From the NCBI GenBank assembly GCA_002049455.2, contig KV918891.1, forward strand, positions 124,001 to 188,000: a DNA stretch of 64,000 nt, read 5' to 3'. The stretch is from Porphyra umbilicalis (taxonomy: Eukaryota > Rhodophyta > Bangiophyceae > Bangiales > Bangiaceae). Positions 13,521 through 42,464 of this stretch are shown in pieces; position 1 is the first letter of the stretch; every line of letters begins with the position of its first letter. Both the position numbers and the translations under genes were made by a program. Below the pieces are notes generated by a model. The model searched no databases. It was given only the letters and a program-made list of their open reading frames with translations, and was not told the DNA's origin.

Positions 13521-13892
13521 TGTTGAGCATGGCTCAGCAATTCCATTTGTCGGTACTTACCCGGTTGAGCATTGGGACTCAGTTTTGGGTATTTACCTAT
13601 GCACTTGTTGTATGTTTTGTACTTGTGTGTACTTGATTTGTTGGTCTCGTAGTGGGCACTCTCTGCTGGGGTGAGCTCGGGGGGGGGACTTGTGTGGGGA
13701 GGTGCATGCCCCGTTCTGGGAGGTGCGCCGCGGCCCGCGCGCACTGAGAACTGAGGCACGTGGGTGTGCTCCGAGAGCGGGCTGCACGACGACCTGTCCT
13801 GGGGCCGCCTGGGGTACATTAGGTGGCTGGACACGGCCCAGGACCTCTGCCATAGTAAAACAACGCACCCACTTGACCACACCGACTTCACA
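13521..13892 (+). repeat. copia 5' LTR
   Basis: 372 bp, begins TGTTGAGC and ends CTTCACA, with the usual TG...CA ends. It carries a G-run at about 13680-13688. Confidence 0.96.
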
Positions 13893-13907
13893 GGTTATGG
13901 GCCCAGT
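13893..13907 (+). promoter_or_regulatory. copia primer-binding site, internal initiator-tRNA type
   Basis: GGTTATGGGCCCAGT follows the 5' LTR directly. It does not start with TGG, as a site for an intact tRNA 3' end would. It is complementary to the anticodon stem-loop region of initiator Met-tRNA, the arrangement known from Drosophila copia, where a cleaved 5' half of the tRNA serves as primer. The match to that known site is from memory. Confidence 0.75.
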
Positions 13908-14048
13908 GTCGCTGGTGGTCATCGTTGTCTTCCGTGCCGTTGTTGGCGGGACGACCTTGGTTGGGTTGCCGTGTGTTCCGGCGTCGGGCAGGTGGGTATA
14001 GCCTCCCACGTCGTCAGTGCCGCGCCTGCTGGCGTGGTTGTCATCGTC

Positions 14049-23791: not shown

Positions 23792-25054
23792 GTCCATTCT
23801 ACTGCTCGCGAGGCTCAAATGAGCCTCGGATAAAGCTCACTTGAGCCTCTGTTGGAATCGGCGGTTCTACGCCACCTGAGTAGTAAATCGGGCATTCTGG
23901 CGCATACAAACCAACGTTCTTGCTTGTCTTAGCCATGCTACAGGGCGCTGCCACGGTTTTCTCAGTGCAATGTGATCGTAACCTCTTCAGGAGGCCTGTC
24001 ATGTGCGGAGTGAAGCACGGTGTACAGAGATCAATGCAAACAAGCAGTACGAACAGCGGCACCCCCCGCCGAAAACCATGTCACGGGCGGAAGAAACGCG
24101 TTGACTCTCAAACAGTGCTACAATCGACGGGTGCTGAGGCAGCTCACCCCGTTTATTTGAGAAACCCCTCTGACCTATGGACAAAGTCTTGCGCACTCAG
24201 TGCCGCTGTTGGCCCCCAGAAACACGGCTCGGTGTGGCTGTGCCTTGCGTTTCCGGACTCGCATATATGCCTGGCACTGACGACTCCACCCCTTGGCCTC
24301 TGCACGGCCTCTCATCGCGCCCACTGTTGGCGAGAATGAATGACGAGAACCATCAGGTGCAGCGCTGAATCACGACTCTGCTGCCACGAACTACCTCTCG
24401 GCATGTATGTGTTGGGCATGCATAGTACTGACCGCGCACGAAAGCCGGACGGCGCAGACCACGATGATACCGCTCGCATGCGGACATGAGAGCGGTATGA
24501 GGAGAAGCCGCGCGGGCACGTGTACTGGGCGGAACAGTTCTGCGGGCGTGAGAGTCGCCCGATATCAACACGGCGTCTGGTGCGTAGTTGAGTAACAGGA
24601 ACATTTCTACCTGTTACGCATGACGAAAGCTGAACTGTTGTACGGACAGTCCTGGCCGGCGGGGATGGTGGGGGGACGCATAGGGAGTCATACAGACTGT
24701 TGTTTCTCCTGGCGCGTATAAGCCCTCTTTGGAGCTCGTACGGCTGGCAGAGATCGACCGCAAGAGGCGAGCTGGCATCTCATTCCGCCGTTGCTCCCTT
24801 TCCACATGGCTAGGGAGTAGCAGAGAAGAGGAGATAGCCCACGTGTGTACGAAAAACGCATCGCCCTTGTTCTCTGGGTAAAGGCATGAGGGTAAGGCTA
24901 TCCCTCTCTACGCAGGCGTGGCAGCGGTCAAGCAGCGCGTCCATCCCTCATCCAGAGAAGATTCGACTCTCCTTTCAATTTCTGTGTCATTACAATCAGT
25001 TGTACTTGAATTGCGAAGGACACGTGTATGACGTATCAGGAAGTGGAAAAGAAC
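23792..25054. other. no recognisable gene
   Basis: Contains the short palindrome GAGGCTCAAATGAGCCTC at about 23813-23830; a related GAGGCTCAAATGAG motif occurs at about 42820. Under the giant-element hypothesis this stretch would once have been contiguous with 40031 onward, that is, just downstream of the piggyBac gene. I find no TTAA-bounded terminus in it. Confidence 0.4.
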
Positions 25055-25056
25055 TA

Positions 25057-25108
25057 TGGCGCGTCCCAGAAGAATGATCGGATCCGAGAAAAGCTCACAG
25101 CAAGTCAC
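25057..25108 (+). repeat. left 52-bp terminal inverted repeat
   Basis: Starts TGGCGCGTCCCAGAAGAATG directly after TA and is identical over 52 bp to the reverse complement of 39979-40030. A related CACAGCAA motif follows at about 25116. Confidence 0.85.
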
Positions 25109-26289
25109 GTCCGGTCACAGCAAAATTGTTGGTAAATCCTCCAGCTGTCAGCACTTTCTCTAGCACGCGATTGGCTGAAATCCGCAATCCACTCATGAGC
25201 ACTGCAACGAATCGTGATTTGCGTCCATGTGAGATCTGTAAACATCTTCCGACCTGACTGATGACAGATCTGCAAAAGGAGACGGGGTTGACCTGTGTGT
25301 TGAGTTCCGCTGGGGACTGCTGTTGGCTGCTGTGGCGGGCTGTGGACCAGCCGTCTCCGACATCTTCCAATCTTGCTGCCATCGTCGAGCGTTGATTGGT
25401 CAGATGCGGTCTCTCGTGCTTTGTCTTCCAAGCACAGTGTTGCTGTGGGTTGCTGCGGATTCTCTTCGCAACTCACAGCACGCTCCACAGCAAGAAATTC
25501 CTGCAAGAATTGGTTCTGGAGGCATCCGACCTCATCGCTTGGCGCCACGTTGCCCAATGACCTGGTTCCTTTCGCAGCTGCTTCAGGGATGCACTCTGCA
25601 GCAGAAGCACCTCAGATCCGAACACCGAGTCCTTCCCCGTCGTTCTTCCCTCCGCGGCCTCTGTCGCACCACGTCCTCGTCCTTCACCGTCCACCTTCTC
25701 GTGCCCCCAAGATGGGGGCCCGTACTCCCTCACCTGCGGATGGCACGGGCGTACGAGACACCGCGACGTGCCTGCTGTTTTTTTCGTCGCCCCCCCCTTG
25801 CGTTACCTTCGCCCGAAGCGCGCCAGCGCTGCCCCCCCCCACCTGCCAGTGAACGATTGCATTCTGGCGCCTCGCTGCTGCAGAAGCAAGCAACCCCCCC
25901 CCAACATGAGCTCTCCCCAACGCCCCCCCGTACCCCGGTGCACAACCCCACGAGAATCACCACCAGCTGCCCAAGTGGTTCAGTCTGGTGGACGATCGAG
26001 AGAAGGCTTGCAAGTCTCAGATCAGATCAGTTGATTCTGATCCACATCCAGAAATTCGAGTGTAAGCCCTGTCCTGTCGCGATGCCTGCATCAGATTGTG
26101 TGGCCCGCTCGACTTGGAGCCGGTTGGAGGGGGGACATGTTCAAGGCCGATCAAGGAGGAAGGGACGAGGACGTCCGAGTGCGCATGGTCGCTACGACGG
26201 TGAGACTTGCAATCAGATTTCCACGGAACTACGGCAACCACTGCCAATTACTGCAATCAATACAATTCGCGTAGTTATGCGCGTAGCAT
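25109..26289. other. no recognisable gene
   Basis: Open frames on both strands, none with a recognised motif. Runs of C at about 25791-25798 and 25832-25840. A minus-strand frame at 25105-25557 runs into the terminal repeat and is probably fortuitous. Confidence 0.4.
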
Positions 26290-29200
26290 TCTTGGTGACG
26301 AGACTACGCGCCGTTGACGCCGCCCGCCCAGCACCACGACCTGCGGCGCCCCCGCGTCGGCGGCGCCCGTCAAGACCATCAAGAGACCGTCGTCGCTCGT
26401 GTGCTGGGTGGCTCGCTGTTACTACAGCCGCTGGCTGCGTTCGTGGCGCTTCTAAACTTTAGCGGGTCGTCGGCGGCGGCGCCGCCGACTTGGCGGCGCT
26501 CGACGGCATCACGGGTGGCGCACACGCCGCGCCGACGGCGGCGTCGCCGGCCGCCTCACACTCAACAAGACGCCGTTGTTTTTGGCGGGCGCTGGGGAGG
26601 GCAGGTTCTGGGAGCTGCCCTTGTGCGTGGGGTGGTCGTCGTCGGCGCCGCCGGCGAGTTGACCGCGCCGGACGGCGTTAATGGCGGCGCGCCTGCGGCG
26701 CCGGCGGAAAAGTTGACGGCCGCTACACACTCGCCAGGACGCTGTCATTTCTGGCAGGCACTGTGGTCGGCAGCTGATGCTGCTGGCTCCAGCGCGGGGT
26801 GCGGCCCCCGCGCCAAGTGGTGCGTCGGCGGGTTTGCTTGAGTGCGGGGGGGGGCTGTCGGCGGCGATGCCGCCGCATTTGTCGCTCTCGACGGCGTGTC
26901 GGGCGGTGTGTCGTCGGCGCCGACTGCCGCGTTGCCAGCCAGCGCCCATAAACCAAAACTGTCTAGAGGTGTGCGCTCCTCGGGGGTGGGCCCGTTGTTG
27001 CTGCCGCTTGCAGGAGATGTCACCTCGTCGACCGGCGGGTAAGAGGGACAGTTGGGGCACGTGGGGTAGTCGTCGTCGGCGCCGCCGGCGAGTTGGCCGC
27101 GCCAGACGGCGTCTACGACGGCGCTCCTGGGGAGCCGACCGCCACATCGGCGGCCGATGCCACTTTTCAGGTTTTTGTCGCTTCTGGCGGGCGCTGGGGA
27201 TGGCGGCTGATGCTCCTCCTGCCGGTGCGTGGTGCGACCGCGCCAGCTGGTCGCTCAGTGGGCCTGCTCGAGTGCAGGGAGGGGTTTTCAGCAGCGCTGA
27301 AGAGGCATTCGTAGTCATCGAAGGCGAGTTGGGCGGTGCGTCGTCGGCACCGATCGCCATGCTGCCAGCCGATGCCCCCAAAACCAAAATGCCGTCGCGG
27401 TTTTCGCTCGCCGGGGGGGGGAGCTGTTGTTTCTGCCGCCAGCAGGAGGTGTGGCTCCGCCGACGGCCGGGTCGGAGGGGACGTTGCGGTGCTGGGGGCG
27501 GCTGCTGCGGTGCGTGGGGGGGGGTATTCAGCAGCAGTGCAGCCGAATTGGCGGCGCTAGGCGCTGTCAACGGCGGTGCGCATGCGGTGCCGCATGACAC
27601 GTCCCTGGCCGACACCACCAGAACCCAACAGCTTCCGTGGTGTGCGCTCGCGTTGGAGGGGCTGCTGCAACTGCCGCCAGCAGGTGGTGTGGCCCCGCAA
27701 ACCGGAGAGTAGGGTGGGCTCTTAAGGTGCGGAGGGCGGTCGCCGCCGCTGCGGCCGCCGACTTTGCCATGACCGACAGCGTTTCGGGCCGCGCGTCGGC
27801 GCCACTGACCGGCGCGTCGCCGCTCACCGCGACTAGAACTAAAACGCCAAATTTCTGTGCTCGCGCGCGCGGGGGGGGTGACTGTTGCTGTCGCGCTCGG
27901 CGGCGCAGACCACCAAGTTTCTTGCGGCCGCCGCCTGAACAACTACGCGGTCGTCGATCGCGCCATGGGGGGGGGGAGCTGTTGCTGTTGCGGTCGGGGC
28001 CCTTGCGTCAGTGGCCTCCACCAAAGCTCCCTTGTCGAGCGCCGCGCCGAGCGCCGCGTCGGCGGCCGCCGCCACCCCCACCACGTCAAGCGCCTCGACG
28101 ACGGCCGCCACCACCGCCCTTTCGTCGACAGCCGCACCGCGGGCGGCCGCTACGCCCACTATGTCAAGGGCCTCATCCGCGGCCTTCATCTCCTCTTCTC
28201 GTTGAGGGCCTCGTCGACGGCCGCCGCCTCCCCCCACTCGTCGAGCGCCTCGTCGGGGGCCGGCACCGCCTTCATGACGCCGAAAGCCACGTTGGCGTCC
28301 GCCGCCACGCCAAACACGTCGGACGCCTCGTCGGCGGCCGCCGTCGTCCCCCGCTCCTTCGAGCCCCGCGTCGGCGGCCGCCGCCTCCCCGCACTCGTCG
28401 AGCAACGCATCGGGGGCCGGCGCAACCTCCACCACGCCGACCGTCGCGTCGGCGGCGGCCACCACGCCAAACACGTCGACCGCCTTTTCGGCGGCCGCCG
28501 ACGGCCCCCGCTCCTTCGAGCGCCGCGTCGGCGGCCGCCGCCTCCCCGCACTCGTCGAGCGCCGCATCGGGGGCCAGCGCAACCTCCATCACGCCGACCG
28601 CCGCATCGGCGGCGGCCACCACGCCAAACACGTCGGCCGCCTCGTCGGCGGCCGCCGACCGCTCCCGCTCGTCGAGCGCCGCGTCGGGGGCCGGCACCGC
28701 CCCCACCACGCCGACCGCCGCGTCGGCAGCCGCCGCCACGCCAGGCACGTGGACCGCCTCGTCGGGGTCAGCCGTCGGCCCCCGCTCGTCAAGCGACGCC
28801 GCAGAAGGTAACGGCGTGGCCCGCGGCGCGTCGGCGATGCCGATGGCCACGTCGCTGACGGCGACCACCACCAGAAATGCCGTGCGCAACTGTTTGTGCG
28901 AGCGGTGTGGGGTCTGTCGTTGTTGTGGAAAGGTTTCAGCGTGGCCCCGCCGATGATCGGCCTGGCGGGCACCGTTGGGGTGCGCGGGGGAGGTCTCGGT
29001 TCCGCCGGCACCGAATTGAAGGTGCCGGACGGCAAGTAGCGCGACGAGCTGGCGGTGCCGTCGGCCGCGTCCCCGACTGCCACCATCCCAAAAAATGCAA
29101 TATCGTGCTTCTCTGCGGGGGATGTGGGGGATGCTGTTTATGTGGCAGGCTGCCGGCGTGGCCCCGCGGACGGGCGGCCTGGTCGGCGCCGCTGGGGTGC

Positions 29201-29480
29201 GCGGGGTAGTTGCCGGCGTCGCCATCGCCGCATTGGCGGTGCGCAACGGCGTGTCGCGCGCCGCTGCGGTGGCGACAGTCGCGTTGGCCACCGCCACCCC
29301 AGAAATCGTGCTGCAGTTCTTTGTGCGTTGGGCTGATGGGCTGCTGCTGCTGCCCCAGGCTCCCTTTGTTGCCCCGCCGACGGACGAGCTGGTCGCTGCC
29401 GCCTATGTGCGGAGGGGGATTGTCGGCGCCGCCGCGGCTTTTTGCCTCTTCCGTCGCTGCCGCCGACCCGGGCGGCGCGC
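26290..29480. repeat. 3.2-kb degenerate GC-rich repeat array inside the giant element
   Basis: A recurrent module of roughly 210-240 bp has a CTGTTGxTGCxGCC core followed by a GxCCCCGCCGACGGGCGG-like segment. Its cores fall near 26990, 27420, 27660, 27885, 28912, 29128 and 29338. Between about 28000 and 28860 a second, tighter array interrupts it. The long open frames here on both strands follow from the base composition and repeat periods, and I do not call them genes. Confidence 0.65.
28000..28860. repeat. inner tandem array (units about 115-155 bp)
   Basis: Units contain GCGTCGGCGGCCGCC, CTCGTCGAGCGCCGC, a TCGGGGGCCGGC segment and CACGCCAAACACGTCG. Copies of the TCGGGGGCC segment lie near 28254, 28408, 28567, 28684. 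On the minus strand the units read as an acidic Ala/Asp-rich repeat, but a stop-free frame is expected from this composition. Confidence 0.65.
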
Positions 29481-29761
29481 GGGTCGATTCTCCGTCCAAC
29501 GGCGCGCGGTCCGTCGCCGCCGCCGCGCACACTCCCGCCTCTCGCCGCGTCGGTTGGCCGCCCCCGCACGTCATGGACGCATCTGGCGGCCGGGCGCCAG
29601 GAGACGACGCCTGCCCCGACTGTCGACCCTTCACCTGCCACGAGGATGAGGGCTCGGAACACTTGCGAAAGGGGTGGGGGGGGTGCACGTGGTAGATGTC
29701 GGTGCGAGGCTGGGAGACGCGTCTGTTGCATCATAAAACAGGACAATACACAACGGCTTCT

Positions 29762-31186
29762 TTAACGACAGCCCGCCTTTTTCCAGGAGATAAGGGTGGT
29801 GTCCTTGAGCATATCAAACTCAGTAAAGCCCTCCGACAAAACGTAGACATGCATACGCCAATGGGGCTCGGAAGAAGGGTTCCCAGCACCAGCGTGGACA
29901 GCATCCCCCCTGAAAACAACGCAGCAGCCCACCGGCACATGCAAAACAAAGCAATCCTCCTCTGTCGCAGCACATGTCGCCTCGTTCTCAACGACGGGCT
30001 CAAACGTCTTCGCCCTCCTTCCCGTCCTCTTTCCCCTCCCCCTCGCCTTGGCAACGGTCTCCCCCGCCCCCGTCCCCCCCGCGCCCACAGCTGGTGTCAG
30101 CTGCACCCCCGGCCACGTACGCAGCTGCGTGTTATCCTGGACGGCGAGGAGGCCCCCAAGCACGCGTGGAGCACCATTGCCGACGAGCGACACAGGCGCC
30201 GCGTCAGTGTGCGCAAGCTGCTGCTCAGCACTGGGCTCTGAAAACAGTAGCACAGGAGAATACGAAAAGTAGGGGATACAAAAGAGGTGCGCAAGCAGAA
30301 AGCACATACCGTCCATGGCGGCAAGTCCGGCCTGCAGACCCGGCACCAGCCCCAGTCTGGCCAGATTCCCAGCGTCCAAGGCGAGTTGACGACGACCGTT
30401 GTCACCGCCTGCGCCGCGCTCCTTCGCCTCCGCCGCCGGCGTCGTATTAAATATGACCTCCATCGTACTCTGCACGACCTCCATTGCCTCGCCGAGCGCG
30501 AGAGCCGCCCTTTGCGCACCCAGTGCGCCGCCGAACACCCAGAAGCCGGCACCGCCCCTGCTGAGCGCCTTGTGCACCACGTCCACGGGCCCGCCCAGGG
30601 CCCAGGTCCCAGCACGCATCACGTCGACTGAGCGTGCGGCCGCCAAGGCGCCATCGACGGAACGCACCAAAATGGCCTGAGGGCACGCTACAGGGCCACA
30701 AAGTGCGAGGGCTTGCCGCAGCTTGAGAGCGCCGGCGCCGCAGACCGCCGCAAACTGTTGTAGCTCGGGCTCTTCCTCAAAACAGAGAGTCGAAGGGGGA
30801 AACTCTGGAGCGGACCGTGGAGAATCAGAATGTGGTTCCGACCCAAAAACCAATGGTCCCGACGCGGTGGGGTTAAGGGGATGAAGGGGGGCGGCTGGGG
30901 TGGTGGAGCCCGAGTCTGCCGCCGGTGTTGGCGGGGGGGGGTCGCGAGCCGCACGAAAACGGGAGAGTTCATCTCGGGCTGCGCAAGTGGCAAATTCCTT
31001 CGGAGCCCATGATGACGAGGAAGAGGCGTCCACGGCTTCACCGCGCAGTGCCCGACGGCGCTGCAGCTTTTCGGCGTTGGCTCTGGCGTTCCAGGCCCGT
31101 TTGTACGCCGAGTTGTAGGCACGGGCCCAGACAGCCTTCTCCTCCACAGTCATCCCCGCCAAGGTAGGAGGTCGCCCCGGCACCAT
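29762..31186 (-). CDS. 2-oxoglutarate/Fe(II)-oxygenase-like protein, one intron
   Basis: Minus-strand gene of 450 residues from the ATG at 31184-31186 (MVPGRPPTLAGMTVEEK). A 72-bp intron at 30238-30309 (GTATGT...TTTTCAG) is removed; it is a multiple of three, so the frame is also open through it. The N-terminal 60 residues are Arg/Ala-rich and the next 100 Pro/Ser-rich. The C-terminal third has the arrangement of a double-stranded beta-helix oxygenase: an HxD pair (QQLAHTDAAPVSLVG), a distal His in VVFRGDAVHAGAG and an Arg 13 residues later (PHWRMHVYVL) suited to a co-substrate carboxylate. Related proteins of the TET/JBP and AlkB groups modify nucleic-acid bases, and TET/JBP homologues are known to travel with fungal KDZ transposons. 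Substrate here is unknown. It lies inside the candidate giant element. Confidence 0.6.
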   Translation of the reverse strand: MVPGRPPTLAGMTVEEKAVWARAYNSAYKRAWNARANAEKLQRRRALRGEAVDASSSSSWAPKEFATCAARDELSRFRAARDPPPPTPAADSGSTTPAAPLHPLNPTASGPLVFGSEPHSDSPRSAPEFPPSTLCFEEEPELQQFAAVCGAGALKLRQALALCGPVACPQAILVRSVDGALAAARSVDVMRAGTWALGGPVDVVHKALSRGGAGFWVFGGALGAQRAALALGEAMEVVQSTMEVIFNTTPAAEAKERGAGGDNGRRQLALDAGNLARLGLVPGLQAGLAAMDGMCFLLAHLFCIPYFSYSPVLLFSEPSAEQQLAHTDAAPVSLVGNGAPRVLGGLLAVQDNTQLRTWPGVQLTPAVGAGGTGAGETVAKARGRGKRTGRRAKTFEPVVENEATCAATEEDCFVLHVPVGCCVVFRGDAVHAGAGNPSSEPHWRMHVYVLSEGFTEFDMLKDTTLISWKKAGCR

Positions 31187-31389
31187 GTGTGTCAAGGGTG
31201 GCTCCAACAGGAAATGCGCGACGGAGAACGCCGCGTCGTCCGCTGTCGAGCGCTCGAACGAGACCTAGGCTCAGGCGCTCACCTAAGGCTCTCAGCGAGC
31301 CTCGGACGCTTCACGCACTCAAAGAACGCACAGCGCACAATTCCTCTCGGAAAAATGCTGAGCACCCAACTCTCTGTCAGTAAGAACGT

Positions 31390-31666
31390 TTTTTGGACCG
31401 CTGTGAGCCAATCGTTCCCTCGGATTGCCTTACATGGAGGTTCTTTGGACGCGTAAGAGCCAGTGAATCCCCGTGGAGTGACATGCTGCGAGGAAATTTG
31501 GGGACCGCTTCAATGACCCCACAGAGTGTCAACAGTAAGCCTGTGCGGCGCTTCAGAGCGAGACGAGGCCGTCCAGTGGGCTGCCAGTGAGTTTCTTGGA
31601 CTCTTGCGAGCCATTCGTTTCCTCCAGCAACCAGCAAGACGTTTCTTGGACGCCTCTGAGCCAATG
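31390..31666 (-). promoter_or_regulatory. four-copy TTGGAC-N6-GAGCCA repeat upstream of the oxygenase-like gene
   Basis: Copies at about 31390-31412, 31438-31463, 31591-31617 and 31641-31666 share TTGGAC-N6-GAGCCA with conserved flanks. The motif has a TTGG...CCAA dyad, reminiscent of half-sites bound by a dimer. They sit 205-480 bp upstream of the predicted start of the oxygenase-like gene (transcribed leftward). A regulatory role is inference from position. Confidence 0.5.
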
Positions 31667-31669
31667 GCG

Positions 31670-32311
31670 CACTGTCAAGTGGCATGACGTGACCACCTGG
31701 TGGGTCGCCTCTGTCGTCCTCCCCAGCGCCAGAGCGTCGGCTGTCCGTCGTCTCCATGCGTTTTTCACCCACTCTGGAGTCAGACGTCGTCGTCAGACAT
31801 TCTGGGCGGCGGCGCCCGCCGCGGTGCTGCGCCGGCCAACCCCATTGCTCCATCGTCCCTACGCACACTGCCTCCCGAAAGCTCAATCCCAGCGGGTGCG
31901 GGTTGTGGGCAGCGGGCCTCTGCGGGGACTCCTCGGCGGTATTCGCCATCGCGCATGGTACAACCGCCGCGCCTCAGCCCCCCCACCGCTCGCGCGACTG
32001 ACACAAGCTACACAGAAGCAGTGGCCACTTTTGTTGATGAGGTCACCATAAATATGAAAAAGAAAACTACGTACCTGAACGCCAGTTGCCTTCGTCGGCG
32101 ATACATACGCAGTCGTCTCACCAATTCATCACTGTGAACCCGGAGGGGTCTCTGTCTTCTTTGCTTGACTGTCTTGCGCGCGTCCATCTGCTTCCTAAAG
32201 CAGAGTGCATGAGCAGCAGGAGACGTCAGAGAAAAAGAAAAAAATGCGGCAGACAAGCAGAAAATACAACAAACAGGCCGAAACAAGAAGAAAAAAAACA
32301 TAACTAGCTCA
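31670..32311. other. no recognisable gene; A-rich 3' flank of the transposase
   Basis: No coding motif seen. The segment 32215-32305 is A-rich, contrasting with the surrounding GC-rich DNA. Confidence 0.4.
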
Positions 32312-32319
32312 CTCTTCAT

Positions 32320-32561
32320 CAGGGGTTGTCAGGATAAATATCCGATATCCTGGGCTACTGTAATTGCAAACAAAACGACTATATTCGACGTCATTTTACC
32401 CGAGCGGCTCGGGATATTGACATAGTGACGTCCAGAGCATTCCGTAGGTGGTCTTTTTTTCTTCAGTGGACAATCATGGACGAATATTCTGCGACATATT
32501 CTGGATAATATCCGTATTCTGGCCCGGATACGGCCAAAAAACCATATTCTGACAACCCCTG
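32320..32561. mobile_element. 242-bp hAT-type MITE inserted at the transposase stop codon
   Basis: Ends are CAGGGGTTGTCAG and its inverse (CTGACAACCCCTG). It is flanked by a perfect 8-bp target duplication CTCTTCAT (32312-32319 and 32562-32569). CAGGG-type termini with an 8-bp duplication are diagnostic of hAT elements. It lies across the 3' end of the IS630-like gene. Removing it and one duplication restores GAT GAA GAG TGA, the original end of that gene. Confidence 0.88.
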
Positions 32562-33743
32562 CTCTTCATCCATGAAGTCCTCGTCTGCACCATCTTCTTC
32601 AAGCAAGTCATCTTCTCCGAGCTCCTGGTTGTCTTCCTCTTCTCCCTCCCCGTCCCCACCGCCGTCATGTCCCGCAGCAGCTGCGTCTTGACGAAGCCAC
32701 TCCCAATAAACCCTCCAGAACTGGCTCGCGCACTGCTCCGTCGTCAGCGACCCCAATCCCACCTCAACCATCAGTCCAACATGATTGCTCATGCGCTCCC
32801 CATTAGGCATCACCATCCCGCCCATCCGGTCCTCCGACGACTCGGCCGCCAGCCACTGCTTCAGGATAGAGAAGACCCCCTCGACTGGTGCGAAGTCCGG
32901 CGAGTACGGAGGGAGGCGGAGCACAAGGATGCCGTACTGGTGCGCCAGGTCATCCGCCTCGTCCGAGTGGATGGCGGCGTTATCAATGAGGAGGACGGAG
33001 CGAGCATGCTGCGCCTCCCACTCTTCCGATGGTATGTCAGGATTCCACTTGCCCATTGACGGTGCGAGTTGGTGGATGAAGAGCGTGTAGTCAAGCGCAG
33101 TGTAGGACGGCGGCACGGCGCAAGTCATAGTCTCCACGACTCCATCGATGCTCACGGCAGCCATCACCGAATAGCGTGGGCTCTTGCGAGGGTCTGAGAC
33201 CAGCACCTCGTCTCGCACACCGCGCAGCGCCCAGCCATAGCGACGGTAGCTTGATGAGCCGTCCTTGTGCACCTCATCCATGCTCACTATGCATTTGATT
33301 GGCACGCGGCGTATCTGCCGGGCAAACTCCCGACGTCGATGGGCGCAGCGCTCACGGAAGTGGGTGATGATGCGCTTGTGGGTGTACCCGACAGCGCGCA
33401 ACACACGTGACACGGTCGACGGCGAGTGCGGCAGCCCTTCCAAGCCTGGTAGCTCCGAAAGTTGCCGCAAAGTCTCGGAAATCTCACCCAAAAACGCCTC
33501 TGGGGAGTCCACAATCAGAGACGTGACGGCTACGAGAAAGTTGGGGTTGAAAAGGGCATTGTCATGGTGTTTTTGACCGAGGGCATCATCAGGCCAAAAC
33601 GCTCCCGTCCTACGGAACACCCGGTACCACCGCCCCACGGTCGCGACGCTCACACCCCCCAGCTCTGCAGCGTCCTCCCATGTCATCCGGCCCGCAACCA
33701 ACCAGGATATGACAAGCACACGTCGGTCCTCCGCAAACGTCAT
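32463..33743 (-). CDS. Tc1/IS630-type DDE transposase
   Basis: Minus-strand frame of 426 codons from the ATG at 33741-33743 (MTFAEDRRVLVISWLVAG). Upstream codons are open but not family-like. N-terminal helix-turn-helix (MTWEDAAELGGVSVATVGRW, residues about 19-38) and a second winged-helix-like part (SPSTVSRVLRAVGYTHKR). The catalytic domain has Asp in IVSMDEVHKDG (about 154), Asp in LLIDNAAIHSDEAD (about 252) and Glu in SPDFAPVEGVFSILK, with 33 residues between the last two, the DD-E spacing of the IS630-Tc1-mariner group. An acidic tail follows (EEEDNQELGEDDLLEEDGAD). The last 33 residues come from the hAT MITE at 32320-32561; the ancestral protein ended at MDEE. Catalytic residues are intact. 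It is the best candidate transposase for the TA-flanked giant element. Confidence 0.92.
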   Translation of the reverse strand: MTFAEDRRVLVISWLVAGRMTWEDAAELGGVSVATVGRWYRVFRRTGAFWPDDALGQKHHDNALFNPNFLVAVTSLIVDSPEAFLGEISETLRQLSELPGLEGLPHSPSTVSRVLRAVGYTHKRIITHFRERCAHRRREFARQIRRVPIKCIVSMDEVHKDGSSSYRRYGWALRGVRDEVLVSDPRKSPRYSVMAAVSIDGVVETMTCAVPPSYTALDYTLFIHQLAPSMGKWNPDIPSEEWEAQHARSVLLIDNAAIHSDEADDLAHQYGILVLRLPPYSPDFAPVEGVFSILKQWLAAESSEDRMGGMVMPNGERMSNHVGLMVEVGLGSLTTEQCASQFWRVYWEWLRQDAAAAGHDGGGDGEGEEEDNQELGEDDLLEEDGADEDFMDEEQGLSEYGFLAVSGPEYGYYPEYVAEYSSMIVH

Positions 33744-34148
33744 GTCGACAGCGAAGAATCCCGACGGACGATCAGTCCAGCGCAACACCGTGTGGACGCG
33801 CCCAGGAAAAATGCTGCCACAACTAGACACGAGCACACGCGTCGCTGCTGTGAAGGTCACGCTCCAAGACGTACGTCCAGGTCTTTCGTGGTGGGTATAG
33901 CCGTAGCCCTGTTGATGCACAGACAGGCAGAGCTCTCTGCTTCACGCACCCGACCACCAAGCGACAAGGGCATGCAGTTCCCTCATCCACGGTGAAACTC
34001 ACGGGTGCGCCCAGGCAATGCATGGGGGCGCATTGACAAAGCGCGCGGCACGCCCGCAGACGCCCCCATACCCCTTGGAAGCCATTCCAACCAACAATCA
34101 AAAGGCGCAAGGAGCCGCGCAACAAGGGTCACCGTCCAATCCAGAACT
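33744..34148. other. transposase upstream region
   Basis: Open on the minus strand in frame with the transposase to 33920, but without family similarity. I found no separate terminal repeats that would delimit a small IS630-like element here. Confidence 0.4.
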
Positions 34149-34189
34149 GAGTGCATCCAAACTGACAACGTGACGCCCCCCAGTCACCA

Positions 34190-35283
34190 GTGTCAAGGTG
34201 GGAGTCAGTAAGCGTCCCATTGCCCCCCCTCGCCTTCTTCTTCCAAATACGACAGACTCTTACGGGTGGACCACGACAGCTGATTGCAGTCGGTTTCCGT
34301 TTTTTCTTCGAGGACCACGAAAATCTCACCGCAGACGGCGAAAGCTGCCAAGCCGCACCAAGATGTGGGTTGCTCCTCAAAATAAAGGCCCCTCGGCTTG
34401 ATTCCTGCTCTCTTTCCAGAAAAGGTAGGAGACCCCCTGACAACCCCGCTTGCGAGGCAAGCGTAGAGCAGTCCAGGAGCCACTACGTGAGCAGCAGACT
34501 GGCCTCACAAAAAACGACCGGTTGGCTTCTAGCGGACTGTGTCACACGTGCGCCACGTAGATGGCCCTGTGGGTTACGACTGGCACACCCCTTCCAGACG
34601 GATCAGTTGCAGGACCGGTGCCACCTTACCCACGTGAAGTGGGTGGTGGCGTGCCAGCGCATCCAGTGGCGCAAAAAAGCCGGCTGTAAACGTGATACCG
34701 GACCCCCCGCCCCTCTGCCCCATTCAGGGCGGTCAAGGTGAGGCACCCTGGCTGACGGCATTGAAAATAGCCATTTCTGCCACATTTCCCCATGCCATGA
34801 GTTTACAGCACTCCGTATCCATCCCAGCAGCATCCGCTATCGTCGTGGGGTCCATTGTCCGCACACGCGCCACCGTCGAAGCGCTGTTCTTCCCCCCCGC
34901 CTCCCTCACGGCAGCGTTACTACTCCACACCGTCTACCCTGACCGTCGCCATGCACAACACGCAGCTAGCGTACGAAGACACCTGATCGGCCGAATACAG
35001 GTACGCAGCACTACTAGAGGGCCTTTTGAGTAATTTTCTTTTGCACGGATGCACCAGCGGCGCGGCGACAGTTGCTGCCGCCCGTATTTTTGACTCGCTT
35101 GCAGCAATTATTAACAAGAGCGCGACCGCCTCGGATGCAACTGCCGCTGTGGCAATAGCAGTAGTGTCTGTGGCGGACGCCGTCGAGGCGATCACCACCG
35201 AGCACCTGCGCAACCGTATGAACCATGGTGAGGCGGGGCAGGGAGCCATGAATCCCTTCTTCATCCGAGAACAGGACCATTGA
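34190..35283 (+). CDS. unknown multi-exon gene, copy 1 (left palindrome arm)
   Basis: Three plus-strand frames look like exons of one gene: 34190-34741 (Cys-containing, for example CHLTHVKWVVACQRIQW), 34692-35033 (GEAPWLTALKIAISATFPHA...) and 35026-35283 (AIINKSATASDATAAVAIAV... ending IREQDH). Plausible GT/AG sites exist near 34985-35060. No domain recognised. The opposite strand of the same arm is also open and reads GLYFEEQPTSWCGLAAF (antisense of about 34360-34410), so the coding strand is not settled. The stop-proximal part is Ala-rich and helical. Confidence 0.3.
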
Positions 35284-35594
35284 GGCCGCATCAGCTTCTA
35301 ACTGTTTGTTTTTCTTCTATGGGTCATTGGCATATGGTTCTGCAACCAGGCGACTGCCATGTTCCGTGGGGGTAGCCTTTCACTCGTTTCCCAGTCCTCG
35401 TCTAGCTTTTGTGCTCTTTTCACGGTCCCTGTAGAGTCTTGAAGGACCCCTTACGCAATGCCTCACTGCTTTGTCGCTGCTGTGGGCGTGTGGCAAGGAC
35501 GTCAGTGCGCCTGGTGCAATGGCGTGTCCGGTTTTGCGGCGACGAAGAGTAAAGACGTGCTGGCGTCCCAGCAGTAGCGTAGTGTTTCGACTGT

Positions 35595-36127
35595 TGTTTG
35601 GTGGATTTGAGCAGAAGTTGCGCTCTGGTTTCGTGTTTTGTTTTGTCTCAGTGCAGCTGCTTTGGCGTACGCATTCGCTCCTCATGTCTTGGTGTCGTGC
35701 TGACATTTTGTACGCGGCAAGAAGCCTTCGTGCATCCGAGGGCTGGCCGTAATCTCGCCCGTGTTGGCTAAGACGACGCGCTTCTTTTCTCTCTTGTGTT
35801 CAGCCGTCCATGCTGTTGACCATTGGTCACGCGAGGCGTGCTCTCTGTATGAGCCAAAACTCGGACGCGCCTCTATCTCCAACGCGCAAATCTTCGTTAA
35901 CATTGCGTTCTGACCCGCCAACATCATGAGGCCAGACAACGAAGCGTATCTATGCGTGCTTCTGTCTGCCTGCCATGCACTGCCGTATCTTCGTTGCCCG
36001 CCGTCACTGTCGCGTTCAGCACGCAGATTCGCCACTCATCGAGCGGTGCGTGCGTAGTGCGGTACGGGCACTGGTGCATGAAACCTCGAGCCCAAACGAG
36101 ACCCTGCGCGTGGAACGTTCTCGAGAC
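35595..36127. other. palindrome spacer, no recognisable gene
   Basis: Separates the two arms. Short overlapping frames only. Confidence 0.5.
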
Positions 36128-36438
36128 ACAGTCAAAACAGTACGCTACTGCCGGGACGCCAGCACGTCTTTACTCTTCGTCGCCGCAAAACCGGACACGC
36201 CATTGCACCAGACGCACTGACGTCCTTGCCACACGCCCACAGCAGCGACAAAGCAGTGAGGCATTGCGTAAGGGGTCCTTCAAGACTCTACAGGGACCGT
36301 GAAAAGAGCACAAAAGCTAGACGAGGACTGGGAAACGAGTGAAAGGCTACCCCCACGGAACATGGCAGTCGCCTGGTTGCAGAACCATATGCCAATGACC
36401 CATAGAAGAAAAACAAACAGTTAGAAGCTGATGCGGCC

Positions 36439-37532
36439 TCAATGGTCCTGTTCTCGGATGAAGAAGGGATTCATGGCTCCCTGCCCCGCCTCACCATGGT
36501 TCATACGGTTGCGCAGGTGCTCGGTGGTGATCGCCTCGACGGCGTCCGCCACAGACACTACTGCTATTGCCACAGCGGCAGTTGCATCCGAGGCGGTCGC
36601 GCTCTTGTTAATAATTGCTGCAAGCGAGTCAAAAATACGGGCGGCAGCAACTGTCGCCGCGCCGCTGGTGCATCCGTGCAAAAGAAAATTACTCAAAAGG
36701 CCCTCTAGTAGTGCTGCGTACCTGTATTCGGCCGATCAGGTGTCTTCGTACGCTAGCTGCGTGTTGTGCATGGCGACGGTCAGGGTAGACGGTGTGGAGT
36801 AGTAACGCTGCCGTGAGGGAGGCGGGGGGGAAGAACAGCGCTTCGACGGTGGCGCGTGTGCGGACAATGGACCCCACGACGATAGCGGATGCTGCTGGGA
36901 TGGATACGGAGTGCTGTAAACTCATGGCATGGGGAAATGTGGCAGAAATGGCTATTTTCAATGCCGTCAGCCAGGGTGCCTCACCTTGACCGCCCTGAAT
37001 GGGGCAGAGAGGCGGGGGGTCCGGTATCACGTTTACAGCCGGCTTTTTTGCGCCACTGGATGCGCTGGCACGCCACCACCCACTTCACGTGGGTAAGGTG
37101 GCACCGGTCCTGCAACTGATCCGTCTGGAAGGGGTGTGCCAGTCGTAACCCACAGGGCCATCTACGTGGCGCACGTGTGACACAGTCCGCTAGAAGCCAA
37201 CCGGTCGTTTTTTGTGAGGCCAGTCTGCTGCTCACGTAGTGGCTCCTGGACTGCTCTACGCTTGCCTCGCAAGCGGGGTTGTCAGGGGGTCTCCTACCTT
37301 TTCTGGAAAGAGAGCAGGAATCAAGCCGAGGGGCCTTTATTTTGAGGAGCAACCCACATCTTGGTGCGGCTTGGCAGCTTTCGCCGTCTGCGGTGAGATT
37401 TTCGTGGTCCTCGAAGAAAAAACGGAAACCGACTGCAATCAGCTGTCGTGGTCCACCCGTAAGCGTCTGTCGTATTTGGAAGAAGGAGGCGAGGGGGGCA
37501 ATGGGACGCTTACCGACTCCCACCTTGACACT
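36439..37532 (-). CDS. unknown multi-exon gene, copy 2 (right palindrome arm)
   Basis: Mirror copy of 34190-35283 in convergent orientation: frames at 36981-37559, 36689-37030 and 36439-36696 on the minus strand encode nearly identical products. If transcribed, both copies would run toward the spacer and give complementary transcripts. The plus strand of this arm offers an alternative frame at 37239-37580 (from CLASGVVRGSPTFSGKRAG to HVGCTPF), which runs in the same direction as the following gene. Which reading is real cannot be decided from sequence alone. Confidence 0.3.
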
Positions 37533-37872
37533 GGTGACTGGGGGGCGGCACATGGTCACGTTGGATGCACTCCATTTTGAAAGTGAGGCCGGGCTCCGAA
37601 TCCACGCATGCCCTCTTTTTTGTTTTGTTTTCTATTGATGACCGTCGTTCACCTGTTTCCTGCGTGCTCCTGGCTTTGGACCTTTGCACTGTGAGGGGGG
37701 CAAGCGGGCGCGGACCTGTTTTACCTCGAGGTGCAGCGGCGTCGTAGGGGCGCCAAGGCTCAGGGGGTACTCGGCTTGCGGTGTTTCTTTTTTTTTGGGC
37801 TAGTGTTCATGTGTGTCGTGCTTCAACAGCGCGGCTACTACATCTTGACGAGCGCCTGAAGGCATATTCGGC

Positions 37873-39320
37873 ATGGGCAGCCGGCAGCGGGCGCCTGCGA
37901 CGTGCAAGTTTTGCGGCTACCAGTCGCAGGAGGGCGGTGCGAAGCACGACGCTCGCGACTGCGACATGGTCACCATCCAGTGTCCTTGCCAATTGAGCCC
38001 AGAGAGCGCCCTGTTTGAGACGCCCCCGCGCCACATCAAGTCGTGCAAGATTCAAGCAGGCGGTCCTTCCACGGCGCACTGTGACCTTTGCGTCCAGGAT
38101 GGGCACACAGCCATGACGATCAAGTATGACTCGCTCTACGAAAAGGTGAGGGTGGAAGCCCAATCTTATTCCGGGACAAAGATGAGCAGGGAGCACATGG
38201 ACTGATCTGTGCCCTCGTCCTGTTTCTAACTTTCTACGGCATGCGACCTGCTCTCGTTCGCCTTTCTTTCTCTTGATTTTCTGCTGCGTCTGGATTATGG
38301 ATGTCTCCTCTTTGCGTTTCGTTCTTTCAGGCCACCGAGAAAGGCAAAGTCGTTTTCCGCCACAAGCAAAACTTCACCATGTCTGCCACGGTGATGGTTT
38401 GTGAGGCGGCCACCATGACGGACGACTACGTCAAGAGCGCGCGGGAGGCCGCTCAGAAGCGGTATGGGGAGAAGGACGATAACCACCGCAAGGAGAAGGC
38501 CGCGAACAAGGCGTACCACACTGCCCACCCCATGGTAGTCGCGCGCGACGGGGCAGCGGCGGGCTCAAGTGCCGCAGGGGCCACCGGGGATCGGTCCTAC
38601 GCGGCGCGTGACCTGGAAAACCTGATGGCTATCGCCAGCCGCCGGGGCAAGGCCACGGCCGCCACGCACGTGAAGAACCACGACAAGCTGCGTGCTGCGT
38701 TTGCCTACCGCGGGGCAGGGCACTCTTCTACAAGCGCGAAAGTATCGGCGGCCGCCGACGAGGCGGGCGGATTGCCGTTGTTGCCCGACGGCGGCCCTCG
38801 TCGCGGGCGTGACGTCCTGCTTGGCGTTGACACGCCGCTCAAGAAAATCCAGACGGCTCTGTCTGTGCACGGGGCGGCCCGCTCATCCGCACGGGCGCTC
38901 GCTCTGGCTTCCTCGCCCATGCGCCTACGAGCACCGACGACGTCTCCAGGGAGTCGGCTGGTGGCCAACGGAGTTGTGAACACCATCGACGACGACGAGG
39001 AGCCATCTGCTGCTGCACGAGACGCGTCGGTCGCCGGGGGCGCAGTTAACTCGGTTGGCCTGCTGGACCCAAGCGGTGTCTTTGACCTGTTTGAGAAGCA
39101 GTGCACAATCAAGGACGACTCTGTCTACCTCGGACTGATCAAAAAGGTACTTGTGGAGGAGGGCATCTCAGGGGCAGTGGTGATTGATAATGATACGCCT
39201 GTAGGAGAGCTTGTCGGGATTTTTGAGTCTACCATGAAGGATGCCAAGCAGTGGACCTTTGGTCACCAGCGTTCTTTGGATATTTTCTTCCGCCACTGCC
39301 GGGAGGTCGTCGTGGTTTGA
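37873..39320 (+). CDS. cysteine-rich (zinc-finger-like) protein, one intron
   Basis: ATG at 37873. Exon 1 37873-38145, intron 38146-38330 (GTGAGG...TTTCAG), exon 2 38331-39320; phases match and give 420 residues. The N-terminus is rich in Cys/His in zinc-finger-like spacing: CKFCGYQSQEGGAKHDARDC, then CPC, HIKSC and HCDLC. Next comes KGKVVFRHKQNF and a basic stretch (AQKRYGEKDDNHRKEKAANK). The middle is Ala/Ser-rich low complexity, with a short acidic IDDDEE. The C-terminal 90 residues are well ordered (GVFDLFEKQCTIKDDSVYLG, then LIKKVLVEEG). I recognise no named family. Its position between the palindrome and the right terminal repeat suggests a DNA-binding accessory protein of the element; that is inference. 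Confidence 0.6.
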
Positions 39321-39978
39321 TGTTGTGTTTGTTTCATTGGTCTCGTTCTGTTCGAGTCTCTTTGCAACTTTCTGGTCCCACCTAGCGGCGGCAAGCGCCG
39401 CCCGCCGTGTGCGCTCTCCCCCGGCCGCGGGCCTCACTCCCCGCGGACAAGTTCTGCTCCATGGGGGCAGCGGCCTTCGCCGGCTTCCCCCGGCTCCCGC
39501 CGGCCACTTCCCTCTTGAGTGAGGGGGAGGGTGCAAACAGCTCACCGCCATCGCGGCGTCAGCCCGTAAGCCCACCGTCCCGGCTCCACCGGCCCGGCGC
39601 GGAGGCCGGGTCGCTGCCAGACTCCGCGCGGCAGCCGACACCACCGGTTGGTTCCGCCCATTGGCTTATGACGCGGTCGTCCAGGTGTCCGCTTCCACCG
39701 CCCGGTCCTCCGCCAGCGTTGCAGCGCCGTCAGTACTACAACATACAGCGCGGAAAGGTCAAAAAGCGTCTGTTTCTCTCGCTTGTGATATGTCCCTCCC
39801 CTGCACAAATGAGGTAATGCAACCACATGACTTGCCTTCAGCCGTGCTGTCGTGCCTCTACGTGTGACACACTGACGGGACGGCAGGTGGGCAGTGAGAT
39901 TTTCCCGATCGGGATCGAGCGGCTGAGATTGTCCCGCGTCGAATTACAGTGCCTCGCCCGAACTTGATGTGACTTGCT
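39321..39978. other. no recognisable gene; right subterminal region
   Basis: Contains the 3' flank of the preceding gene. Tandem TGACTTGCTG motifs occur just inside the right terminal repeat (39970-39989). Confidence 0.45.
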
Positions 39979-40030
39979 GTGACTTGCTGTGAGCTTTTCT
40001 CGGATCCGATCATTCTTCTGGGACGCGCCA
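39979..40030 (-). repeat. right 52-bp terminal inverted repeat
   Basis: Reverse complement identical to 25057-25108, followed by TA at 40031-40032. The piggyBac stop codon lies 17 bp to the right. Confidence 0.85.
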
Positions 40031-40046
40031 TATCGTGTTGTCAAGC

Positions 40047-42464
40047 CTACACGTCCAACTCATGCACGTTGCGAAGATGCCCATCAGAACACTTGCGCCC
40101 CGTCTTGGGGCCGCACAAGAACACGCCCCCATTGTCGCCTCCATGGCAGCCCGAGCAAACGTAAGACGACTTGTGGCACTTGCACTCACGACACGTGCGC
40201 TGCGCCCGGTGATCCCCGGGTGCCGCGCCATTCCGGCGCTTCCGCGTGGGCATGAGGTGAATGCCGAAACCGTGGCGGAGTAGAGCTGTCGCGCCATCCT
40301 GTGGAGAGGTCGCTGAGGCGGTGCGGGCACGGACACCGATGGTGGTGAACGTGTTGTCAATGAGCTGCGCCGCCAGGTCCTCATAAAACTGCTTCTGAGT
40401 CAAGATGGCGTCCGCCCCACGCGCCCCCGAGTAGAGCACCCACGAGTCGACCATACACATTCCCAACAACGACAGATTGACGCGCATGGACCAATCGTGC
40501 GTCGCCAGCTTGTGTTCTAGGCGGAGGTCATTCTGCCGACAACGGTTGTGCTTGTCGATGGCCGCACAGCACTCGTAGTATTCCTTAGCGACTTGCGGCA
40601 GCTTGACTTTCAGAGCCACCCGCTCGGCATGCTCCCCCATCTGGCGCCAGCGGACACGATCGTGGGGCTCGCCCTGCAGCGAAGGGGATGTTGACGCGAT
40701 GAAGTACCGGCGCTCACGGTCCACCCACATCAACGCCATCAGGTTCACAGCCCCTTCTGGCGTAGAATGGGTGTACGTGGCATGGTCTCCGCGAGTATCC
40801 ACCTCTATCGTCGAAAGGGCTTGCATAGGGTAGCCACGTGTCGCCGTCTTGACCACGCCGATGAACCGGAGCCCCATTGCCAACAGCTGGGTCGCGGTGG
40901 TGATGCTTGCGAAATAGGAGTCCGCGCAAACTACGCGCTGTGTACCCGACCAGGGAGGTACCAGGCGCTTCAGTACGGCGGCGCCATGATGCAGACCGTC
41001 ATCGTGGGTCGGACCAGTAGCTCGCCGATTCTCTGCAGAGGTCACAACACTCAGCCGTAGCATAATCCCGCCCCTCCCGCACGCCGCGTTTTGTATGTCA
41101 CAGCCGTTCTCAGGCTTGCGGTCAATCGCGACGTACATGGGCAGCCCCCGCTTGATCCAGGGACAACCCGGCCCATACCACTTGCACATCGATTCGTCGA
41201 CACAAATGTACTCGCTGGGAGACACGTGGGCGTCGCGGTGGGTGTTAATGGAATCAATAAAGTCCGTAATTAACTCCCAACGGCTCTGCTCCGAGTCGTC
41301 ATCACCACCGCTCTTCTGCTCACTGAAGGCCACACAAGACGACAGGGCATCAAAGCGGCAGCGGGAGAGGCCGGTGCGTTCACCAAAGAATGGCGCCACG
41401 AGGTACGGGTTGCGCGGCTTGGTCGACCACAGCTCCGCGCGCGAGACAAACTCGTATCTGGTTGCCAGGACAACCATTCCGATAAACTTGAGCAGCTCCC
41501 CCCGGGTAGTCGGCTGCAATCCACGGGCATCCAGCTCGGACGAGGTCAGGTGGGCCATGCGCGTCAACTGCTGCATCGGGAACATCGTGAGGAGGTACTC
41601 GTTGGGGGTGCGCGTCGTCCTCGGCAATAGTGCGTCCCCGTCCTCCAATATGACCTTCCCCGGTAACGTCCACACTGACCAGGTCCGACGCGCCACTGGG
41701 CCCCCGATGGGCTGCTCGACAGCCCCTGCAGTCCATGTCAAGCCATGGGCAGTGGTCGTTACGAGGGTGGCAGCGGACGCGTGCGAGGCTGGCTCCCCCG
41801 CGCGCGCGCCGATGCTTGGCGACGGCGTCACTTGGGAGGAGGAAGGGGGCAAGCTCGTCATGGAAGAGCGAGTGAGGGGGGTCAGGGGGGGGTGGCCACC
41901 GTCCTGCGGAACCGTCGCATCCTGCGACCCCTGAGTCACCGGCGAGGCAACCTCGATGCCGGTGGGAGGGGGTGTTGGAGCCAACGCGGGGGGGGAGCCA
42001 GCCTTGACGCTCCGCAAGGACAGAGTCTTGTCCAACAATCTTGTCTTGACCGTCCACATGACACGCAGGTCGGTCTTGCGGCGTTCGTCCCTCTGCGCCC
42101 CCGGCACAACCTCCATTACCTGCCCGCTCACGAACTTGCTCGACGCCAGCGTCCCAAACAGGCGCGAGCATTCAGCGTAGTTGGTGACGTTGGTGGCCTC
42201 CGTGTGCACCACCGCGCCAACTTCCAGGCGGGCGTCCTTCCCAGGCCCCTTGCATCGGCGGCGAGAGGCGGGGGGCGGGGGGGAGAGTGCGGCGGCGACA
42301 GGGGGAGGGGGGATGTGGAGTGGCCGGAAGGCCGGCGGGATCCCGCGCCCTTGGCCATGATTCCGTACCCAAGGGTTGCAGTGGACTGCCGCACCCGAGG
42401 GGAGAGAAAGGGGGGGGGGGGGGGGGGGCACACGCCGGCGTGGGACAGAGAGGCAGGCGGCCAT
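40047..42464 (-). CDS. piggyBac-family transposase
   Basis: Minus-strand frame of 805 codons from the ATG at 42462-42464. The first ~300 residues are Pro/Ser/Thr-rich and poorly conserved; an internal start is possible. The core has a first catalytic Asp in YICVDESMCKWYGPGCPWIK (about residue 422), a second in RVVCADSYFAS (about 513), and the conserved KHNRCRQNDL segment (about 638) that holds the third in this family. The C-terminus carries the cysteine-rich domain typical of piggyBac (CRECKCHKSSYVCSGCHGG ... CGPKTGRKCSDGHLRNVH). No stop or frameshift. I did not find TTAA-bounded termini; the 3' flank appears interrupted by the element ending at 40030. Confidence 0.93.
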   Translation of the reverse strand: MAACLSVPRRRVPPPPPPLSLPSGAAVHCNPWVRNHGQGRGIPPAFRPLHIPPPPVAAALSPPPPASRRRCKGPGKDARLEVGAVVHTEATNVTNYAECSRLFGTLASSKFVSGQVMEVVPGAQRDERRKTDLRVMWTVKTRLLDKTLSLRSVKAGSPPALAPTPPPTGIEVASPVTQGSQDATVPQDGGHPPLTPLTRSSMTSLPPSSSQVTPSPSIGARAGEPASHASAATLVTTTAHGLTWTAGAVEQPIGGPVARRTWSVWTLPGKVILEDGDALLPRTTRTPNEYLLTMFPMQQLTRMAHLTSSELDARGLQPTTRGELLKFIGMVVLATRYEFVSRAELWSTKPRNPYLVAPFFGERTGLSRCRFDALSSCVAFSEQKSGGDDDSEQSRWELITDFIDSINTHRDAHVSPSEYICVDESMCKWYGPGCPWIKRGLPMYVAIDRKPENGCDIQNAACGRGGIMLRLSVVTSAENRRATGPTHDDGLHHGAAVLKRLVPPWSGTQRVVCADSYFASITTATQLLAMGLRFIGVVKTATRGYPMQALSTIEVDTRGDHATYTHSTPEGAVNLMALMWVDRERRYFIASTSPSLQGEPHDRVRWRQMGEHAERVALKVKLPQVAKEYYECCAAIDKHNRCRQNDLRLEHKLATHDWSMRVNLSLLGMCMVDSWVLYSGARGADAILTQKQFYEDLAAQLIDNTFTTIGVRARTASATSPQDGATALLRHGFGIHLMPTRKRRNGAAPGDHRAQRTCRECKCHKSSYVCSGCHGGDNGGVFLCGPKTGRKCSDGHLRNVHELDV

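What the first reader, a model, noticed from the sequence alone, without database searches (positions are those of the whole stretch)
25057..40030. Candidate 15-kb giant TA-target transposon carrying an oxygenase, a palindrome and a cysteine-rich protein
Seen: two identical 52-bp inverted repeats with TA outside each, 15 kb apart, enclosing exactly one TA-type (IS630/Tc1) DDE transposase with intact catalytic residues, plus an oxygenase-like gene, a duplicated unknown gene and a spliced Cys-rich gene. Known: IS630/Tc1/mariner elements duplicate TA and are usually small. Inferred: this is one mobile unit with cargo, possibly comparable in concept to KDZ elements that carry TET/JBP oxygenases but on a different transposase backbone. 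This is my best candidate for an undescribed system.
Basis: partly seen in the sequence, partly recalled or inferred. Interest (0 to 1): 0.88.

Follow-up and report, generated by a model that had tools for sequence, protein, structure and literature searches.

The report
Giant mariner-type transposon with oxygenase cargo
A 15-kb stretch of this genome is a real jumping gene of the mariner kind, several times larger than usual, which carries an oxygenase-like enzyme, a spliced zinc-finger-like protein and a large non-coding mirror-image DNA block that its relatives in the same genome also carry.

Summary
The unit is 14,978 bp (25055-40032), with 54 identical terminal bases including TA. At a paralogous site on contig C3 the flanks lie joined at one TA within a 2,772-column, 95.9% alignment. 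Like termini bound five elements read whole (14.2-19.1 kb) and a sixth seen at both ends. Of 14 loci with this transposase clade, 12 hold the zinc-finger-like gene, 12 the oxygenase-like gene (one a fragment), 10 all three. All three genes show purifying selection (dN/dS 0.09-0.24 between divergent lineages). Correction: the 'duplicated unknown gene' is a palindrome with no coding signal; its arms are 96-99.5% alike within an element, 62-72% between lineages. It lies between the divergent transposase and zinc-finger-like genes in 6 of 6 copies. The transposase is IS630/Tc1/mariner type (DDE_3, DD33E). The oxygenase keeps HxD...H...R but matches no Pfam family; models were poor. Multi-gene Tc1/mariner elements are known from ciliates, TET/JBP cargo from other fungal superfamilies; ten literature searches listed no mariner-type element with an oxygenase. 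A new, large variant of a known kind.

The parts
25055..40032 (.). whole transposon, 14,978 bp including the TA at each end
   Evidence: termini; empty paralogous site with one TA; related elements
25055..25108 (+). left terminal inverted repeat with TA
   Evidence: 54/54 identical to the right one; aligned with ten element ends and two MITE ends
39979..40032 (-). right terminal inverted repeat with TA
28048..28799 (.). GC-rich tandem repeats (39/117/157-bp units) in the left part; no conserved coding frame seen in this part
   Evidence: a comparable larger array (397-bp unit) in the C63 element
29762..31186 (-). oxygenase-like gene from the ATG that aligns with the start in C63 and C71b (listed ORF starts at 31207); HxD, H and R kept
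32320..32561 (.). 242-bp hAT-like MITE inserted in this copy at the end of the transposase gene, flanked by CTCTTCAT; not part of the family
   Evidence: absent from C253 and C299
32562..33743 (-). IS630/Tc1/mariner-type transposase, 394 codons, DD33E
34149..35594 (+). left arm of the central palindrome, no coding signal
35595..36127 (.). spacer of the palindrome, 533 bp
36128..37572 (-). right arm of the central palindrome, 99.0% like the left
37873..38145 (+). exon 1 of the Cys/His-rich (zinc-finger-like) gene, 91 codons
38146..38330 (+). intron of that gene, 185 bp, GT...AG
38331..39320 (+). exon 2 of that gene (420 aa in all)

Best explanation
An autonomous cut-and-paste DNA transposon of the IS630/Tc1/mariner group, 14-19 kb long. 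Shown: it inserted as one unit at a TA and duplicated it, has terminal repeats of about 54 bp, and belongs to a family with a fixed gene order (oxygenase and transposase on one strand, palindrome, Cys/His-rich gene on the other), each gene under purifying selection. Inferred: the DD33E transposase cuts at these repeats, and transposases of the family move the 220-240-bp MITEs that share them. The Cys/His-rich protein is an accessory DNA-binding factor. The oxygenase is an Fe(II)/2-oxoglutarate dioxygenase (about 0.65) that helps the element escape silencing by acting on modified DNA or chromatin (about 0.35). The palindrome is a duplicated 5' region, homogenised by gene conversion or flipping, that gives the two divergent genes the same regulatory sequence (about 0.4). 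That it is one mobile unit of this group I hold at about 0.97; the confidence below is for the statement as a whole.
For: Empty site with one TA, 2,772 columns at 95.9%. Five elements read whole with paired termini and TA, one more seen at both ends. Transposase clade at 14 loci, 12 with the Cys/His-rich gene, 12 with the oxygenase, 10 with all three, order and strands alike in 10 of 10. dN/dS 0.09-0.24 across lineages. H, D, H, R kept in 6 of 6 oxygenases checked, three of the six at 32-40% identity from other loci of the genome and one more such (identities). Palindrome arms: 400 sites fit homogenisation and 0 separate descent between C131 and C299; placed 276-482 bp from both start codons in 6 of 6.
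Against: The oxygenase matched no Pfam, NCBIfam or PHROGs family; models had pLDDT 41 and 42; it is open in 3 of 7 copies examined, so it may not be needed for every transposition. No substrate, expression or transposition data. Oxygenase relatives also occur at more than 20 loci without this transposase, so the enzyme family is not confined to the element. The MITE ends look more like the C63/C20 ends than the window's. C63 and C71b share 579 bp of right flank at 99.8% while their left flanks differ, so these two are not clearly independent insertions. Between the closest pairs the palindrome counts are slight (5 against 4; 12 against 2).
Confidence: 0.6

Rival explanations
1. The ends and transposase are mobile, but the oxygenase and Cys/His-rich genes are passengers caught by chance between two ends.
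For: The oxygenase has many relatives elsewhere in the genome and is broken in 4 of 7 copies examined.
Against: The same three genes in the same order at 10 of 14 loci, down to 56-75% protein identity, and dN/dS of 0.16-0.24 for the two accessory genes across lineages.
Confidence: 0.1
2. The oxygenase-like protein is not an Fe(II)/2OG dioxygenase, or is one that acts on a metabolite and benefits the host or the element in some way other than silencing.
Confidence: 0.35
3. The palindrome is not a shared promoter but makes hairpin or double-stranded RNA, or is a structure needed for replication or transposition, or is re-created by repeated duplication.
For: It is long, near-perfect, non-coding and kept in all six copies compared; nothing here shows a promoter; Rfam gave no match in 25000-40100 at E up to 0.5.
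Against: Its place between the two divergent genes is constant and the homology of the outer edges runs on toward both genes.
Confidence: 0.45
4. It is the remnant of a virus-like element (Maverick or similar) that borrowed mariner ends.
For: Size of 14-19 kb and several genes.
Against: Only three conserved coding genes were seen in the alignable parts. Viral-contig scans with the oxygenase and the Cys/His-rich alignments found no relative, a limited test.
Confidence: 0.03

Closest known systems
Sardine and Thon, Tc1/mariner elements of Paramecium (PMC3464196; passages seen)
   Same: IS630-Tc1 type DDE transposase with further genes on one element; palindromic DNA in the element.
   Different: Sardine is about 6.7 kb with up to 4 ORFs, carries a tyrosine recombinase and has palindromic TIRs of 425 bp (Thon about 700 bp). 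Here 14-19 kb, an oxygenase-like gene, short TIRs of about 54 bp and a central palindrome.
TBE elements of Oxytricha (PMC4724952; passages seen)
   [quoted passage not shown] purifying selection on the genes.
   Different: TBE target duplication is given as ANT and the TIRs bear telomeric repeats; no oxygenase. No sequence comparison between the two was made here.
Fungal DNA transposons with a TET/JBP dioxygenase (PMC12730594; abstract, outline and 4 passages seen)
   Same: A dioxygenase gene carried by a DNA transposon; proposed there to help escape silencing.
   [quoted passage not shown] 'mariner' and 'IS630' occur 0 times in its main text. The present enzyme does not match Tet_JBP.
Ordinary Tc1/mariner and IS630 elements (recalled: usually 1-3 kb, one gene)
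   Same: TA target, terminal repeats, DDE_3 transposase, MITE derivatives.
   Different: Several times larger, three conserved genes, central palindrome.

Membership tests
IS630/Tc1/mariner transposons | insertion at TA with duplication of TA | tested here: met
   TA at both edges of the elements read; empty site with one TA
IS630/Tc1/mariner transposons | transposase of the DDE_3 kind with a D-D-E/D triad and a short D-E spacing | tested here: met
   PF13358 61.6 bits against a cut-off of 28.6; D215, D313, E347 of the listed ORF, 33 residues between the last two. Told against it: the NCBIfam IS630 model gave 91.7 bits, under its cut-off of 100; nearest PDB sequences, SETMAR, only E 0.18
IS630/Tc1/mariner transposons | terminal inverted repeats | tested here: met
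Fe(II)/2OG dioxygenases | HxD...H iron ligands and a following R | tested here: met
   H333, D335, H438, R451 of the listed ORF; kept in 6 of 6. The meaning of the motif is recalled
Fe(II)/2OG dioxygenases | match to a curated family model | tested here: not met
   no family for the window protein in Pfam, NCBIfam or PHROGs at E up to 1; of four relatives in Pfam at E up to 5, three none, one HTH_63 below cut-off. So it is called oxygenase-like, not filed as a member
Fe(II)/2OG dioxygenases | double-stranded beta-helix fold | tested here: inconclusive
TET/JBP dioxygenases | match to Tet_JBP (PF12851) | tested here: not met
   not among matches. The genome search with PF12851 found nothing, but nothing rang in the 14 control genomes either, so that search says nothing
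KDZ transposons | KDZ-type transposase | tested here: not met
   the transposase matches DDE_3; no KDZ model among the matches
ciliate Tec/Sardine/Thon elements | tyrosine recombinase gene in the element | tested here: inconclusive
   no such match among the ORFs scanned; a spliced or fast-evolving gene could be missed
ciliate Sardine/Thon elements | palindromic terminal inverted repeats | tested here: not met
   TIR similarity ends at about 69 bp; the palindrome is central

The most novel reading that the evidence does not exclude
A lineage of giant mariner-type transposons has recruited a new family of Fe(II)/2OG dioxygenase as its own counter-silencing enzyme, works with a dedicated zinc-finger-like helper, and keeps its two divergent transcription units under one and the same regulatory sequence by holding them at the edges of a self-homogenising palindrome. 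This would be convergent with the TET/JBP cargo of other transposon superfamilies.
Probability: 0.3. Interest if true: 0.8.

Novelty: new variant of a known kind. Interest (0 to 1): 0.62.

Why it matters
Mariner-type transposons are the textbook minimal element, one gene and two ends (recalled). A family that moves 14-19 kb with a selected three-gene set shows that this machinery can carry a large load in nature. If the oxygenase acts on modified DNA or chromatin, it adds a further transposon superfamily to those that bring their own counter-silencing enzyme. The palindrome is a natural case of concerted evolution inside a mobile element whose role can be tested directly by transcript mapping.

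Tried and rejected
Rejected: the arms as a duplicated gene (no coding signal; no Pfam match for two arm ORFs). Rejected for now: coding function in the GC-rich left part (no strongly conserved frame; among the 10 ORFs scanned one weak match, FmdA_AmdA 17 bits against a cut-off of 27, in a tandem-repeat ORF).

Led nowhere: the protein database search for the oxygenase was not possible, so relatives outside this genome are unknown. PDB sequence searches gave nothing significant for the oxygenase or the Cys/His-rich protein. Both structure models were poor; the second is of the core of a paralogue at C116, not of the window protein. The empty-site test for the C299 element is weak: repeat copies run through the joined TA, but with only about 10-16 bp on the left. 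Joined flanks of C253 and C20 were prepared but not searched. In a first control the maximum, 584, exceeded the observed 54; one search shows which inverted repeats of the window cause this. A 20-kb stretch of C68 was fetched and not analysed. Of the MITEs whose flanks were printed, three (L021, L022, L027) lie in the same repeated flank, so they are not independent insertions.

Literature: ten searches in open-licence PubMed Central, of which I saw listings; three papers were read in passages. Most subscription papers and Repbase reports are not held.
Full report
Observation. The window is G000:C131:124001-188000 of an 83.8-Mb, 665-contig genome. At 25055 and 40032 lie inverted repeats, identical over 54 bases with the TA and 93% alike over 69. 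GC is 0.617 in the element and 0.611 in the window, so composition does not set it apart.

Mobility. The flanks of the element, 200 bp on each side joined with one TA, match C3:411094-411493 at 96% across the junction. Extended, the two loci align over 2,772 columns at 95.9% with 2 gaps, and the junction reads as a single TA. This is a paralogous site, not an allele. A piggyBac-type ORF (40047-42464, DDE_Tnp_1_7) ends 14 bp beyond the right terminus. The whole 15 kb therefore arrived as one unit with a TA duplication.

Family. The terminus search listed 42 places (40 of 159 candidates scored, so a lower bound). Elements with two termini and TA, read whole: C131 14,978 bp, C253 14,601, C299 14,247, C63 19,081 and C20 17,430. 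C71b shows both ends, 180608 and about 197625, but was read only in part; it shares 579 bp of right flank with C63 at 99.8% while the left flanks differ. Main collinear blocks are 95.5-98.8% alike between C131 and C253 and 71-87% between C131 and C299; C63 and C20 are 65-81% like C131 where they align, their terminus more. Ten smaller places were fetched: eight have both ends (seven of 240 bp, one of 220 bp), two showed one end only. The seven 240-bp copies are 97.9-100% identical; three of them lie in the same repeated flank. Their ends look more like those of C63 and C20 than the window's, so the mobilising transposase may be that of a sister element.

Gene set. The transposase clade (64-100% identity; the next hit has 44%) occupies 14 loci: C131, C253, C299, C63, C20, C71 twice, C321, C194, C208, C91, C8, C65, C315. 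The Cys/His-rich gene is at 12 of 14 (not C208, C8), the oxygenase at 12 of 14 (not C91, C315; at C321 only a 90-residue piece), all three at 10 of 14. In those 10 the order and strands are alike: transposase then oxygenase on one strand, the Cys/His-rich gene divergent. The Cys/His-rich gene also occurs next to a terminus at C68 and as pieces at C148, C1 and C269, without the transposase clade. Oxygenase relatives, most at 24-49% identity, occur at more than 20 further places.

Coding evidence. dN/dS of the window copy against divergent lineages: transposase 0.14 (C299), 0.09 (C63), 0.10 (C20), 0.09 (C71); oxygenase 0.16 (C299, part) and 0.23 (C63); Cys/His-rich exon 2 0.19 (C299) and 0.21 (C63), exon 1 0.22 and 0.24. 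Against the near-identical C253 it is 0.27 (transposase) and 0.45 (exon 2) at dS 0.02-0.03, with few changes; against a paralogous oxygenase at C116 it is 0.28. The intron keeps GT and AG and exon 1 its frame in 6 of 6 copies. The oxygenase is open in the window, C63 and C71b copies and broken in those of C253, C299, C20 and C71a, 3 of 7.

Cys/His-rich protein. Exon 1 has a run of Cys and His (such as C-x2-C-x9-H-x4-C) kept in the other lineages, with one Cys lost in C71a. I call it zinc-finger-like by eye; no Pfam family reached its cut-off and no PDB sequence matched.

Palindrome. In 6 of 6 copies (C131, C253, C299, C63, C20, C71a) an inverted repeat lies between the divergent genes, with left arms of 1446, 1446, 1710, 761, 757 and 785 bp and within-element identity of 99.0, 99.2, 99.5, 98.9, 97.8 and 96.4%. 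Between lineages arms are 62-72% alike. Between C131 and C299, 400 sites fit homogenisation of arms and 0 fit separate descent; between C63 and C20, 12 against 2; between C131 and C253, 5 against 4. No stop-free frame of the left arm compared with C299 showed an excess of synonymous change, while the transposase did. A search with the arm found 8 places, all in these elements: two each in C131, C253 and C299, one each in C321 and C208; C63-type arms were below its reach. Each lineage has thus kept its arms alike, by conversion, flipping or renewed duplication. The arms lie 406-482 bp from the transposase ATG and 276-413 bp from the Cys/His-rich ATG, which is why I favour shared 5' regulation; no expression data test it.

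Comparison. [quoted passage not shown] Dioxygenase cargo is reported for ten fungal transposon lineages, none mariner (PMC12730594, abstract and passages). The present element joins the two traits, is larger and has a central palindrome. Ten searches of the open literature listed no such element, which does not exclude one in print elsewhere.

Noticed in passing
window 40047-42464: piggyBac-type transposase ORF of 805 aa (DDE_Tnp_1_7); its stop lies 14 bp from the right terminus, and the related sequence at C3 serves as the empty site.
   Followed up: partly
window 32320-32561: 242-bp hAT-like MITE with 8-bp duplication inside the end of the transposase gene; it displaces the stop codon and adds residues to the ORF of this copy.
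   Followed up: partly
window 13764-18233 and 5170-6936: ORFs of 1489 and 588 aa that read like copia-type and Ty3-type polyproteins (names from recall, no search run).
   Followed up: no
window about 11-13 kb and 43-45 kb: a second long inverted repeat pair, exact matches of 59-201 bases, outside the element on both sides.
   Followed up: no
L071 (C116), L072 (C279), L060 (C372): oxygenase relatives at about 32-35% identity to the window protein and about 95-99% to each other; C116 and C279 share a 3.8-kb block at 94.6%, so this branch too is multi-copy and perhaps mobile.
   Followed up: partly
G000:C63 about 214222 and C71 about 180607: the right flanks of two elements are 99.8% identical over 579 bp while the left flanks differ: segmental duplication, rearrangement or assembly.
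   Followed up: partly
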